The notes beneath the pieces are model-generated. The model searched no databases. It had not been told where the DNA came from and saw only the letters and a program-made list of their open reading frames with translations. Positions 13,392 to 63,988 of a stretch of 64,000 nt of DNA are shown piece after piece. Numbering within the stretch: the stretch's first letter is position 1; each line of letters opens with the position of its first letter. Source of the DNA: Argopecten irradians (lineage: Eukaryota > Mollusca > Bivalvia > Pectinida > Pectinidae); assembly GCF_041381155.1 (NCBI RefSeq), contig NC_091149.1, forward strand, positions 10,804,609 to 10,868,608, in the 5' to 3' direction. The translations under genes and the position numbers were made by a program.

Positions 13392-13479
13392 ATGGTGTTT
13401 GTTGAAGGTTTCTTGCTCACATTTGCCTTTATCCTCGGGACAAAGCAAGTCAGTGGTGCGCCTCACCATCACGAGCATG
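13392..13479 (+). CDS. Gene A exon 1: signal peptide
   Basis: Encodes MVFVEGFLLTFAFILG followed by a polar His-rich stretch (PHHHEHG), then a gtatgt donor in phase 1. 'gttgaag' before GGTTTC aligns with the exon-2 acceptor of genes B and C, so this exon may use that acceptor from an unseen first exon instead. I chose the ATG because it is in frame and gives a hydrophobic core. Confidence 0.65.
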
Positions 13480-61500: not shown

Positions 61501-63988
61501 AGTCCAAATGATAAATCATTGCAGGAACACAGACAATAACTATAAAGGTATGATAAATTTAATTTGCCTTTTAAAGGTATTAGTCTCACATACCCAAATA
61601 ATTCCCCGTAGATCAATATACTTTATAACTGTTCCATCACCAGAAGGTTACTCGGAACGTCTCGGATGTACTGTCGTACATTGACCTCGGATGTGACACA
61701 ACGGTCATACATTTTGAAACTAAGGAACTATCTTCATAACAACTGGTTACCACCTCGGACATATTCCCTCGAAACGCGTCATTTCATTGATATTGTGTGT
61801 TGTCTGTCTCGAAAAAGAAATAGTTACATTCAACTTCTTATAATATGACTAAGTTCATCATTTCAATAAGGATTTTTCTTTATGCGTAGTTAGGGCGTTA
61901 TCAGGTTTTCCGGCGAAGAAAATACCAGTTTGATTTCTTGCGTATTCTAACACCTATTACATCCGAGGTTATGTTTTACATCCGAGAAGTTCCGATTGCC
62001 AGAAGGTTGGACTAATTGACGATAAATTGTACTTTTTCCCACATCGTTCTGGTATTTCGAAATCGACGTATCCCTAATGATTCGTGAAATGTTCTTCCTT
62101 TTCTAGCCATCTACGACACCACGTTCTATATGGGTACAAGTTCGTCCAAGCACCGGATGTGTGTTCGCCATGCTGAACGTATGATTCTTATTTAACTTGA
62201 AGAAAAAAATATTCAAATTAAATGATTACATCCAAAAACAGAATCCACGATACTATGCAATAGATATGGAATGAATTATTATCTGCGCACGTACCAAAAG
62301 CAAAATAATTAGATAAACAAAATAAATTTGTGGTAATAAGACACACATAAACGATTAAACATCAATTAATGTTCAAATGAGGGGTATCGTTTATGTCTTT
62401 GCAGCATAAAGAACATTCATAAGCCGAATAAATTTATCGTTCGTCCTTAGCGCATTCACTCTAAGGACACATTTAGATCCTTCTAAATGAAAAGTTAGAT
62501 CAGATAATTGTGAGCTTTTTGTGAAAAGAAGAGACTAAACCTGAAGCACAATATAATCGGGATTATACATATATATAATATATGTATGAATATATTATAA
62601 TATATATTATATACATTATCCTTTATTTGCTCTAATTATATATTAAAAAAAAACCGAAGAATATATATCTTTATGCAATTATTTATACTATCATTAAATC
62701 GATTTTTCAGAATGGGAAAAGCTTGCTGAAGTACAAGACAATAGCTGTTTTATGGAGCTAGTACAACTCTTTCGTGGTAATATTTTATTTGTAATCGCTG
62801 TTGGTTGATTACTTCTATCTAACAGTATATTGTAAGTTCACATTATACAGTAATACTTCAATTATATCTTGATTTTCGTTGCATAGAACTGCTGCAGGTT
62901 AAAAGCTAAAAGACTTCACCATGCTAAATGCTGGACATCAGTTGCCGCGATGACTTATGAATACAAACCCATACCATCAATTTCTCACAATAGCGTTCCC
63001 CAGTTGAAAAATCAAATATGGCGGCTCGGTCAACTTTGGACCTCATCATTACTCTGACAGAGATACTTAGTTGTTCCACCTTGGTTATCTTCATTTTTTT
63101 AATGACGACTTTATTAATTTTTAATATAATAATTTTTGCTTGAACAAAAACCAATACCATACTTTTGGATTAACCAATGAGAGCCGGATCATTTATGCGG
63201 TAAAAAACATTTCAAACAAATGTCCTTAATTAATATATACATATGTTATTATATTGCGAAAAAAAAAACAAGTGATGCATTAATGGCCCGTTTGCTAGGG
63301 TGATATGGAATATCCCATTATTTAATGCAGGGAAACTAAACCGGGGTACGGTTGCAGTAACTTGATACGACATTTTAAGAGTTACCGAAACGACTGTCCA
63401 ATATTATATAAATACACCGCCCGAACGTTTCACCCCGAGGATACAGGGTGACAGTGATAACTAAACCCTCGGGAAATTATAGACACAAATTGTTCATCCT
63501 ACCTACTAATTCAGTCCATTACCCTACTCATTAGCAAACCAACAATATTATATTTCATGTATATTGTCGAAATGTCCTTACAACATTATTGTGTAATCGA
63601 TTATGTATTAGATATGCTCGGTGTACCTCCACTATTTCCATTGGTTAAACATGGTCACGTGACGTTTCGCATGTATAGCAGTGTTGTATCGAAGTAGTCG
63701 GAGTATTTTCCGTTTTTACATAGAGTTTCAAAATCATTTTTGAATTGCGCTTTGCCCTAACGTTGATTTCGTAACAAACAAAAAAAATACATTCACTGTT
63801 GTAAACATGACGTATGATAAGATATATTATGTTTATTTTGAAAGGCTGCACAACATATTGTAAATTATGTATTTATATTGTCTATATTTCAGAAAGTTTA
63901 TACAATATTATGTTTGATATTGTGTATATTTCAGACAAATTCTTTTCACACAATCCTGACAGAAGATGTACATGCGGATACTCACAAG
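49528..63988 (+). CDS. Gene C: ShKT plus cysteine-repeat protein (11 exons, 3' end beyond window)
   Basis: Exons: 49528-49555, 53236-53283, 53811-53927, 54621-54680, 55873-55917, 56286-56360, 60249-60326, 61503-61547, 62107-62178, 62711-62776, 63935-63988. They total 688 bp (229 codons plus one base), all phase 1, with no stop at any junction. Layout matches gene B: signal peptide with cleavage near THA, ShKT domain about 27-60, repeat 1 and repeat 2. Counterparts of B's exons 12-14 should lie just past the right edge. C is closer to B than to A: it has the ShKT exon, the Ser/Thr linker, exon 9 and equal exon lengths. Intron 6 is swollen to 3.9 kb by a 101-bp satellite and intron 7 carries a GA microsatellite. 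Function is unassigned; a secreted or cell-surface binding protein is a guess. Confidence 0.85.
50156..50337. mobile_element. Nested fold-back element with tandem core
   Basis: Outer arms of about 47 bp ('cttcctatggcatctatggt' and its inverted partner) enclose two tandem copies of a 48-bp block, each with the palindrome 'gcgctagcgc'. It is in intron 1 of gene C. Confidence 0.85.
50560..50900. mobile_element. TIR element fragment related to 17062-17640
   Basis: 'caatagagcgcatcc' and 'ggatgcgctttatgg' are inverted partners at 50780-50885; the same internal arrangement occurs in gene A's fourth intron. Confidence 0.45.
51425..51537. mobile_element. Fold-back MITE
   Basis: 'aaggatattcttcccgaagg' and 'cacaaaatgttgtaaaaccc' are followed, after a short centre, by their inverted copies. 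Confidence 0.75.
52151..52330. mobile_element. CRE-bearing MITE, copy 5
   Basis: Ends 'attccgtctttgcatataac' and 'gtaatatgcaaat'. The TGACGTCA sites are mutated here ('acatgatgtcaaaatc'). Confidence 0.75.
52440..53045. repeat. AT-rich tandem repeat (ATAATTTGATCACATCAAAATTATC type)
   Basis: About 25 degenerate units of 22-27 bp built on 'taatttgatca' and 'tcaaaattat', themselves near-palindromic. The array fills the end of gene C's first intron. Confidence 0.8.
53236..53283 (+). CDS. Gene C exon 2: rest of signal peptide
   Basis: Encodes YLLPLTFFLRNTHAY between gttgaag and gtaagt, one codon longer than in B. It is phase 1 and joins in frame to exon 1 and to the ShKT exon. Confidence 0.8.
53811..53927 (+). 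CDS. Gene C exon 3: ShKT domain
   Basis: CYDRNNNC, TWARNGYC and NQCHLSCHLC give the six-cysteine ShKT pattern in the same 117 bp as gene B. Acceptor ttccacag, donor gtatga. Confidence 0.9.
53895..54190. repeat. Local triplication of the ShKT exon 3' boundary
   Basis: 'tgctcttcatcaagcggtat' at the exon end recurs as 'tgctcttcatcaatcggtat' near 54006 and 'ttgcttttcatcaagcggtg' near 54170, each with similar flanks ('gacatcgtgacatgatat', 'ataggcacgaaaagat'). The extra copies lack the rest of the exon. Confidence 0.75.
54621..54680 (+). CDS. Gene C exon 4: Ser/Thr linker and first Cys of repeat 1
   Basis: Encodes SSTTTFTEATECLRDSYYN, phase 1, acceptor tactag, donor gtaagt. The threonine run suggests O-glycosylation. 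Confidence 0.85.
54893..55080. mobile_element. CRE-bearing MITE, copy 6 (best preserved)
   Basis: Ends 'attccgtctttgcatattac' and 'gtaacatactgatacagaat'; 'gctcccttgcgg' and 'cccgcaagggcag' are inverted partners. One intact TGACGTCA in the right arm. Confidence 0.85.
55873..55917 (+). CDS. Gene C exon 5: second Cys of repeat 1
   Basis: Encodes LKSLTGNSCTSMDN between tttcag and gtacgt, phase 1. Confidence 0.9.
56286..56360 (+). CDS. Gene C exon 6: W..CARDAA core of repeat 1
   Basis: Encodes WYYLYHLTTSNHPHCARDAA then KYLR between ttacag and gtatga, phase 1. 14 bp upstream of the exon begins a small MITE fragment (56210-56255). Confidence 0.9.
57845..57985. mobile_element. Perfect 50-bp-arm palindrome
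   Basis: 57845-57894 and 57936-57985 are exact reverse complements around a 41-bp centre. The motif 'gaccccctat' is also found in both orientations near 57094-57122, a diverged relative. Confidence 0.9.
58196..58345. mobile_element. Fold-back element
   Basis: 'gggcaacagacgatttgttg' and 'caacaaatcatctgttgccc' are inverted partners, enclosing 'aggccgtaggccgaggg'. It interrupts the 101-bp satellite. Confidence 0.75.
59610..60018 (+). mobile_element. SINE-like element, most complete copy
   Basis: Continuous copy of the family: 'ctgtcccctggccgag', 'acacaccaaagtc', 'ctgcttagcgctcagcaaac', 'gccgttgtcagtataatgtg', 'ggccgtccttacattacc' and a CAAA/TAAA tail. No polymerase III boxes are obvious, so the class is uncertain. 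Confidence 0.75.
60249..60326 (+). CDS. Gene C exon 7: CTCSC end of repeat 1
   Basis: Encodes YYKVHHPGSHCTCSCQDIEL then THTDQ, from ttacag to gtaag, phase 1. Confidence 0.9.
60824..61084. repeat. (GA)n microsatellite, about 260 bp
   Basis: Near-pure AG dinucleotide run with a few AGGG or AAAG interruptions, in intron 7 of gene C. The Arg-Glu ORFs over it are not genes. Confidence 0.98.
61503..61547 (+). CDS. Gene C exon 8: first Cys of repeat 2
   Basis: Encodes QMINHCRNTDNNYK between tttcag and gtatga, phase 1. Confidence 0.85.
61975..62090. mobile_element. Half of the palindromic MITE of 24645-24808
   Basis: 'ccagaaggttggactaattg' and 'acgataaattgtact' match the right arm of that element, ending just before gene C exon 9. 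Confidence 0.5.
62107..62178 (+). CDS. Gene C exon 9: second Cys of repeat 2
   Basis: Encodes IYDTTFYMGTSSSKHRMC then VRHAE between ttctag and gtatga, phase 1. Confidence 0.9.
62711..62776 (+). CDS. Gene C exon 10: W..CFMEL core of repeat 2
   Basis: Encodes WEKLAEVQDNSCFMELVQLF then R, from tttcag to gtaata, phase 1. Confidence 0.9.
63935..63988 (+). CDS. Gene C exon 11: CTC end of repeat 2
   Basis: Encodes KFFSHNPDRRCTCGYSQ from atttcag to gtaaat, phase 1, 12 bp before the window ends. Confidence 0.9.

What the first reader, a model, noticed from the sequence alone, without database searches (positions are those of the whole stretch)
13392..63988. Three tandem genes for a secreted, micro-exon, cysteine-repeat protein family
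At least 36 small exons can be read by splice sites and paired across three genes. Exon lengths are often identical (45, 75, 78, 66, 72, 54, 117 bp), junctions are almost all phase 1, and every chain joins without a stop. The order ShKT, then two or three C..W..C..CTC repeats, is a combination I do not recognise. The uniform symmetric phase explains how exons could be lost or gained without breaking the frame. This is the strongest candidate here for an undescribed system.
Basis: partly seen in the sequence, partly recalled or inferred. Interest (0 to 1): 0.88.

Follow-up and report, generated by a model that had tools for sequence, protein, structure and literature searches.

The report
Scallop secreted modular cysteine-repeat gene array
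This bay-scallop DNA holds part of a row of genes for secreted proteins built from small, frame-neutral exons: an unnamed five-cysteine helical repeat joined to different end domains, as if by exon shuffling; what the proteins do is not known.

Summary
The exons are real. My spliced models of genes 1 and 2 equal NCBI "uncharacterized" proteins of Argopecten irradians letter for letter (P0006, P0001), and gene 3 equals the first 229 of 735 residues of P0005. The window holds 40 exons and 37 GT-AG introns, 35 of 37 junctions phase 1. Corrections: gene 1 starts at 11257, not 13392; it has no ShKT exon and looks like a 3'-truncated copy of an upstream gene; gene 3 runs to 90800. The row has at least five genes over about 154 kb. 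The unit is a repeat of about 65-75 residues with five cysteines (25 of 25 as cut), four exons each, predicted helical, without a Pfam match. It carries optional ShKT, extra repeat pairs, and one of two heads: fibrinogen-C, or a 130-residue domain linked through intermediate scallop exons to the bacterial BPSL0067 family. The seven proteins found are all scallop. Best reading: exon-shuffled, FREP-like humoral recognition proteins; the anatomy is firm, the function inferred.

The parts
11257..11278 (+). gene 1 exon 1 (start codon; upstream of the finding's start)
   Evidence: needed for identity with P0006
13408..13479 (+). gene 1 exon 2, signal peptide
   Evidence: AG acceptor at 13406-13407
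14829..14867 (+). gene 1 exon 3, repeat R1 part A
15379..15423 (+). gene 1 exon 4, R1 part B
16949..17023 (+). gene 1 exon 5, R1 part C
19688..19765 (+). gene 1 exon 6, R1 part D (CxC)
21743..21787 (+). gene 1 exon 7, R2 part A
24005..24088 (+). gene 1 exon 8, R2 part B
25361..25426 (+). gene 1 exon 9, R2 part C
26251..26307 (+). gene 1 exon 10, R2 part D
26982..27059 (+). gene 1 exon 11, R3 part A
27345..27392 (+). gene 1 exon 12, R3 part B
28803..28874 (+). gene 1 exon 13, R3 part C
29513..29599 (+). gene 1 exon 14, R3 part D
30744..30815 (+). gene 1 last exon: R4 part A (30744-30782) read on past a GT donor to a stop; copy truncated here, similarity to gene A ends near 31231
34248..34275 (+). 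gene 2 exon 1 (start codon)
   Evidence: identity with P0001
35411..35455 (+). gene 2 exon 2, signal peptide
36414..36530 (+). gene 2 exon 3, ShKT domain (PF01549), single 1-1 exon
37186..37245 (+). gene 2 exon 4, R1 part A
37734..37778 (+). gene 2 exon 5, R1 part B
38284..38358 (+). gene 2 exon 6, R1 part C
38665..38742 (+). gene 2 exon 7, R1 part D
39746..39787 (+). gene 2 exon 8, R2 part A
41270..41341 (+). gene 2 exon 9, R2 part B
41622..41687 (+). gene 2 exon 10, R2 part C
42644..42697 (+). gene 2 exon 11, R2 part D
43549..43721 (+). gene 2 exon 12, C-terminal domain part 1
44487..44606 (+). gene 2 exon 13, C-terminal domain part 2 (phase 0-0; resembles exons of the BPSL0067-like scallop genes)
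45448..45555 (+). gene 2 exon 14, C-terminal domain part 3 and stop
49528..49555 (+). gene 3 exon 1 (start codon)
   Evidence: exact prefix of P0005
53236..53283 (+). gene 3 exon 2, signal peptide
53811..53927 (+). gene 3 exon 3, ShKT domain
54621..54680 (+). gene 3 exon 4, R1 part A
55873..55917 (+). gene 3 exon 5, R1 part B
56286..56360 (+). gene 3 exon 6, R1 part C
60249..60326 (+). gene 3 exon 7, R1 part D
61503..61547 (+). gene 3 exon 8, R2 part A
62107..62178 (+). gene 3 exon 9, R2 part B
62711..62776 (+). gene 3 exon 10, R2 part C
63935..63988 (+). gene 3 exon 11, R2 part D; 20 more exons follow outside the window, to 90800

Best explanation
It is part of a tandem row of at least five genes, on one strand of a bay-scallop chromosome, for secreted disulfide-rich modular proteins. 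The shared core is a helical five-cysteine repeat encoded by four phase-1 exons; the pair R1-R2 is present in all seven proteins found. To this core other class 1-1 modules are attached: a ShKT exon in front, extra R3-R4 pairs behind, and one of two heads: a fibrinogen C-terminal domain (gene B) or a 130-residue domain distantly related to the bacterial BPSL0067 family. Most likely mechanism (inferred): the repeats form a rigid disulfide-bonded stalk that holds the head, and the head binds sugars or cell-wall matter of microbes, so the proteins work like FREPs (fibrinogen-related proteins) as humoral recognition or effector factors; module gain and loss varies stalk length and head. Shown: gene models, module boundaries, phases, duplications, purifying selection. 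Supported but not proved: the link of the head to BPSL0067 through intermediates. Inferred: stalk role, binding, immune role.
For: Gene models equal P0006 and P0001 and the start of P0005; the full chain for P0005 has 31 exons, 28 of 30 junctions phase 1, and P0007 has 14 exons, 12 of 13 junctions phase 1. Over these four genes 65 of 70 junctions are phase 1. 25 of 25 repeats, as cut, have five cysteines, 24 of 25 a tryptophan. Profiles of R1-R4 align with matching cysteines over 46-64 columns, pairwise E 7e-8 to 1.4e-3. Models give three helices and a CxC strand per repeat, blocks mostly at pLDDT 60-86 with some at 45-57. Fibrinogen_C in P0007: 233.1 bits, E 4.5e-69; its gene lies in the row and the domain is joined at a phase-1 boundary after the R2 exon of 54 bases, where the other head sits in gene 2. 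In gene 3 R5-R6 repeats R3-R4 as an eight-exon block with the same exon length in seven of eight (dN 0.196, dS 0.92).
Against: No expression, protein or binding data were seen. ShKT, cysteine repeats and fibrinogen domains also occur in proteins with other roles (recalled). Whole-region dN/dS is well below 1, so there is no sign of arms-race selection at that level; single sites were not tested. The head has no direct match in Pfam or NCBIfam and only chance-level ones in the PDB, and its model is poor (block pLDDT 21-41). hhalign probabilities between repeat types are mixed: 94.6, 82.9 and 81.1 percent, but 35.9, 23.4 and 17.5 for the rest, from shallow profiles.
Confidence: 0.42

Rival explanations
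1. The proteins are structural: extracellular-matrix, mucus, byssus or shell-matrix components in which the cysteine repeats cross-link and repeat number sets length.
For: Cysteine-rich (15 to 44 Cys per protein), variable repeat number (2 to 6), Thr/Pro-rich stretches before the head in P0002-P0005, purifying selection.
Against: One member bears a fibrinogen C domain, often a binding head (recalled); the other head has intermediates that resemble the BPSL0067 family. No proteome was searched.
Confidence: 0.3
2. A splicing-diversified system like schistosome micro-exon genes: symmetric exons are skipped singly to make many protein variants.
For: Small symmetric exons with long introns; record titles name isoforms X1 and X2 for P0007 and P0004.
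Against: All six exon boundaries inside the repeats of the P0001 model cut predicted helices; 25 of 25 repeats in seven proteins are complete; exons here are mostly 39-120 bases, whereas MEG exons are given as 3-81 or 6-81 with a majority of 15 (PMC10526429, passages). Isoforms themselves were not looked at.
Confidence: 0.1
3. A toxin or venom-like secretion built round the ShKT domain.
For: PF01549 match above its cut-off in P0001, P0002, P0003 and P0005.
Against: ShKT is not matched in P0004, P0006 and P0007, and it occurs in many multidomain enzymes and proteins of other roles (PMC6409789, passages).
Confidence: 0.05
4. Gene 1 alone is a decaying pseudogene fragment rather than a working gene.
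For: Collinear with gene A up to about 31231 and then lacking the rest of R4, the linker and the head; it ends by reading past a splice donor.
Against: Fifteen exons without a stop or frame break; dN/dS to gene A 0.054/0.125; NCBI lists the protein.
Confidence: 0.35

Closest known systems
FREPs and other fibrinogen-related proteins of molluscs
   Same: Gene B of the row has a C-terminal fibrinogen domain behind a cysteine-rich stalk.
   Different: BgFREPs typically have one or two IgSF domains joined by an alpha-helical linker to the fibrinogen domain (PMC12074976, passage); here the stalk is an unnamed five-cysteine repeat pair, and genes 1-3 have no fibrinogen match.
Metazoan class 1-1 shuffled extracellular modules (Patthy)
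   Same: Modules bounded by phase-1 introns, signal-peptide exon ending in phase 1 (PMC8001218, passages).
   Different: A passage of that paper says the most used class 1-1 modules are mainly beta; this one is predicted helical, and its inner introns are phase 1 too.
Micro-exon genes (MEG) of Schistosoma
   Same: Secreted products, many short exons mostly in multiples of three, long introns (PMC10526429, passages).
   Different: Larger exons, cysteine-rich repeats, domain modules; no sequence relation was sought.
ShKT-domain proteins of molluscs (CAP-ShKT, M12-ShKT)
   Same: A ShKT domain as an accessory module (PMC6409789, passages).
   Different: No CAP or metalloprotease match in the Pfam scans.
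BPSL0067 family (NCBIfam NF033857), and by my recollection the Tae2/Dae2 amidases
   Same: The head resembles scallop exons (br1) that match NF033857 (E 5e-5, 23.6 bits), with introns at like places.
   Different: No direct match of the head to NF033857; the score of the intermediate is under the 27-bit cut-off; enzymatic residues not tested.

Membership tests
ShK domain (PF01549) | Score above the curated cut-off of 20.9 bits | tested here: met
   P0001 29.7, P0002 21.7, P0003 25.5, P0005 26.4; no match in P0004, P0006, P0007, so it holds for genes 2 and 3 and not for gene 1
FREP (fibrinogen-related protein) | Fibrinogen C-terminal domain | tested here: not met
   Genes 1-3: no PF00147 match in P0006, P0001, P0005. 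Met only by gene B (P0007, 233.1 bits), outside the window
FREP (fibrinogen-related protein) | N-terminal IgSF domain(s) | tested here: not met
   P0007 gives Fibrinogen_C only, at E 10 or lower
Class 1-1 exon-shuffled modules | Module boundaries in phase 1 | tested here: met
   ShKT exon, repeat and head boundaries are phase 1; 65 of 70 junctions overall in four genes
Micro-exon genes (Schistosoma) | Exons of 3-81 bp, majority of 15 bp | tested here: not met
   Gene 2: 10 of 14 exons are 81 bp or less, none of 15; gene 1: 13 of 15, none of 15 (lengths)
Micro-exon genes (Schistosoma) | Variation by skipping single symmetric exons (feature recalled) | not testable with these tools
   No RNA reads at hand; 25 of 25 repeats in database proteins are complete
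BPSL0067 family (NF033857) | Score above 27 bits | tested here: inconclusive
   Head: no match, though the filters drop weak ones. Intermediate br1: 23.6 bits, E 5e-5; br2: none. Head profile against br1 30.1 and br2 34.0 bits, best of 10,000 shuffles 14.7
BPSL0067 family / NlpC-P60-type amidases | Catalytic Cys and His, peptidoglycan cleavage (recalled) | not tested
   Cys26 and His79 of A2 are invariant in the four heads aligned; their correspondence to catalytic residues was not established

The most novel reading that the evidence does not exclude
Scallops have an immune-type protein family in which a new, helical, all-phase-1 mini-exon stalk is fitted with interchangeable heads: an animal fibrinogen domain, or a bacterial-type BPSL0067-like (perhaps peptidoglycan-amidase-derived) domain taken up by animals, with stalk length changed by duplicating eight-exon blocks.
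Probability: 0.2. Interest if true: 0.8.

Novelty: new variant of a known kind. Interest (0 to 1): 0.52.

Why it matters
It gives a clear, countable case of exon shuffling: one row of genes in which ShKT, repeat pairs and two different heads are swapped at phase-1 boundaries. The repeat got no Pfam match above cut-off and the relatives found here are all scallops, so it looks like a lineage-specific module. It also offers a test of why class 1-1 modules are usually beta-rich, since this one is predicted helical. If the head is a domesticated bacterial-type domain, it adds a case of animal immunity built from bacterial parts.

Tried and rejected
Direct assignment of the head: Pfam, NCBIfam and PHROGs gave nothing over it, the PDB nothing or one chance-level ribosomal match at E 1.6 with the profile. 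Weak matches elsewhere that I took as chance: PHROGs of unknown function over R3 of P0003 (E 0.015) and P0002 (E 0.24); Pfam WelO5 (E 0.0043, 17.1 bits against a cut-off of 27) and others in P0005, two short ones in P0006, IL28A in P0004 (E 2). The whole-length profile A3 against the PDB gave two ShK-domain chains (E 0.019 and 0.31) and two ribosomal ones above E 2.

In the flanks I kept only tblastn hits of 26-27 bits or more; among them three minus-strand hits (31.2, 26.6 and 26.9 bits) looked accidental and were dropped. The idea that symmetric exons are skipped singly was set aside because inner boundaries cut helices. Papers, ten searches: none for Dae2 with amidase and bivalve or for three scallop locus names; one for BPSL0067 and four for ShKT with scallop, listings seen only; and listings of 15 of 19, 15 of 2,390, 10 of 16, 10 of 93, 10 of 36 and 10 of 968, in which no title names this family. 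Of papers I saw passages only: PMC8001218, PMC10526429, PMC6409789, PMC12074976, PMC11347951. A whole-genome search for copies of the family with P0005 did not complete, so copies outside the 224 kb examined (80 kb upstream, the window, 80 kb downstream) are unknown.
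Full report
What was checked. Splicing the exons in the window gives three chains. Gene 1 (15 exons, 11257-30815) and gene 2 (14 exons, 34248-45555) translate to exactly the NCBI proteins P0006 and P0001, and gene 3 (11 exons in the window, from 49528) to exactly the first 229 residues of P0005 (proteins). All three are labelled uncharacterized proteins of Argopecten irradians, so the window is bay scallop. All 37 introns are GT-AG; 35 of 37 junctions are phase 1. Whether the NCBI proteins rest on RNA was not seen.

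The row is larger than the window. Flanking sequence of the same contig (G000:C16, window at 10804609-10868608) shows two more members upstream on the same strand and the rest of gene 3 downstream. Gene A (about -62.7 to -34.2 kb from window position 1): 19 exon pieces taken from tblastn hits were placed; they cover signal peptide, R1 to most of R4, and the head. They were sought by their own peptides, so their lack of stops is by construction; the first exon, the last R4 exon and the splice sites of the linker were not placed, so intactness is not shown. Gene B (-27283 to -9676): exact 14-exon chain for P0007, R1-R2 plus fibrinogen C. Gene 3: exact 31-exon chain to 90800. No convincing further member was seen between 90800 and 144000 or between -63 kb and -80 kb, the limits of what was fetched. 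The span from gene A to the end of gene 3 is about 154 kb.

The repeat. Each repeat is a string of about 65-75 residues with five cysteines ending in CxC. I cut 25 repeats from the seven proteins (7 R1, 7 R2, 6 R3, 5 R4); as cut, 25 of 25 have five cysteines and 24 of 25 a tryptophan. Three R1 copies (P0001, P0005, P0006) have one more cysteine just beyond the cut, so disulfide pairing cannot be read off. Profile comparisons between R1, R2, R3 and R4 give pairwise E-values from 7e-8 to 1.4e-3, with hhalign probabilities of 94.6, 82.9 and 81.1 percent for R2-R3, R3-R4 and R1-R3 and only 35.9, 23.4 and 17.5 for R1-R4, R2-R4 and R1-R2; the shared four-exon layout adds to the case. In gene 3 every repeat is four phase-1 exons: R1 60, 45, 75, 78; R2 45, 72, 66, 54; R3 72, 48, 72, 87; R4 39, 57, 84, 51; R5 69, 48, 72, 87; R6 39, 57, 84, 51 (the assignment of exons to repeats is mine). 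R5-R6 is a copy of R3-R4 (69.6% identity over 161 codons, dN 0.196, dS 0.92). AlphaFold models from shallow alignments (4 and 7 sequences) give three helices and a short CxC strand in each repeat; blocks there are mostly at pLDDT 60-86, some at 42-57, and the head is under 50. Overall pTM is low (0.43, 0.35), so packing between repeats is not known. Foldseek gave no match at E 0.001 or lower.

What moves. In the P0001 model the boundaries after R1 and after R2 lie outside predicted helices and the six inner boundaries lie inside them. Differences between the proteins are mostly of whole modules: ShKT matched in P0001, P0002, P0003, P0005 and not in P0004, P0006, P0007; R3-R4 absent in P0001 and P0007, present once in P0002-P0004 and twice in P0005; head either the 130-residue domain or fibrinogen C. 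P0006 is the exception, broken within R4. Uniform phase 1 keeps such moves in frame, as in class 1-1 modules described by Patthy (PMC8001218, passages seen). P0003 and P0004 are listed with the same longest contig length, which suggests, but does not prove, a tandem pair in Mizuhopecten too.

Gene 1. It is collinear with gene A, in blocks of about 70-89% identity, from about 13307 to 31231, and then lacks the counterparts of gene A's later exons. Coding divergence is dS 0.125, dN 0.054 over 242 codons. So gene 1 is most simply a partial, 3'-truncated duplicate; whether it works is open.

The head. No direct match was found (chance-level PDB match). A search of the scallop genome with the NCBIfam model NF033857 (BPSL0067 family), which I chose from memory of the family's look, gave two sub-threshold hits, best E 1.87. 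The first hit is an exon 1.9 Mb away on the same contig, which alone matches NF033857 at E 8.1e-4. Joined to its next exon (br1) it matches at E 5e-5, 23.6 bits, under the 27-bit cut-off. The head finds the same two exons by tblastn within the 20 kb round them (E 4e-5 and 0.022, sensitive settings, composition correction off), together with a second gene on the other strand (br2, E 9.9e-5). A profile of the five heads scores br2 34.0 and br1 30.1 bits against a best of 14.7 among 10,000 shuffles of their letters. Introns fall at like places and in phase 0 on either side of the middle exon, by my reading of the printed sequence. Against this: br2 itself has no NCBIfam match, the head has none, and br1 was picked as best hit in a whole genome. 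I take the relation as likely, not proved. That BPSL0067 proteins are Tae2/Dae2-type peptidoglycan amidases is my recollection; from a paper I saw only passages saying that tick Dae2 is a domesticated amidase effector that kills Gram-positive bacteria (PMC11347951).

How it works. A secreted stalk with interchangeable heads is the reading that fits the anatomy; humoral recognition is inferred from the fibrinogen head, the possible bacterial-type head and the gene turnover. A structural role is the main rival. Relatives were found only in three scallop genera (7 proteins in all), but the search needs shared five-residue words and has size limits, so more distant relatives may be missed.

Noticed in passing
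window 1790-2206; 4983-6985: Retroelement remains: integrase core (PF00665, E 1.2e-15), reverse transcriptase (PF00078, E 5.3e-22) and RNase H (PF00075, E 1.1e-7) in separate frames; a fourth frame (5640-6107) had no match.
   Followed up: partly
window 16581-16653: ARAGORN calls a tRNA-Thr (tgt) inside an intron of gene 1; a second similar stretch follows near 16800 by eye, so it may be a tRNA-derived repeat.
   Followed up: no
window 18171-19638; 22017-23830; 52499-53029; 57994-59582; 60823-61084: Large tandem arrays in introns and between genes: units of about 47, 59/118, 25, 101 and 2 bases. The 59-base array also lies in the matching intron of gene A.
   Followed up: partly
window 13821-14612: About five copies of a 155-base unit inside intron 2 of gene 1.
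   Followed up: no
L027 and L028 (G000:C16:8873001-8893000): Two scallop genes on opposite strands with BPSL0067-like exons; a thrombospondin type 1-like open frame (by eye) lies upstream of one.
   Followed up: partly
G000, 27 places: Twenty-seven ShK matches in the genome at E 0.001 or lower, many clustered on C2, C4 and C14; one of them is gene 2's. Gene 3's domain is not in that list, so the count is a lower bound.
   Followed up: no
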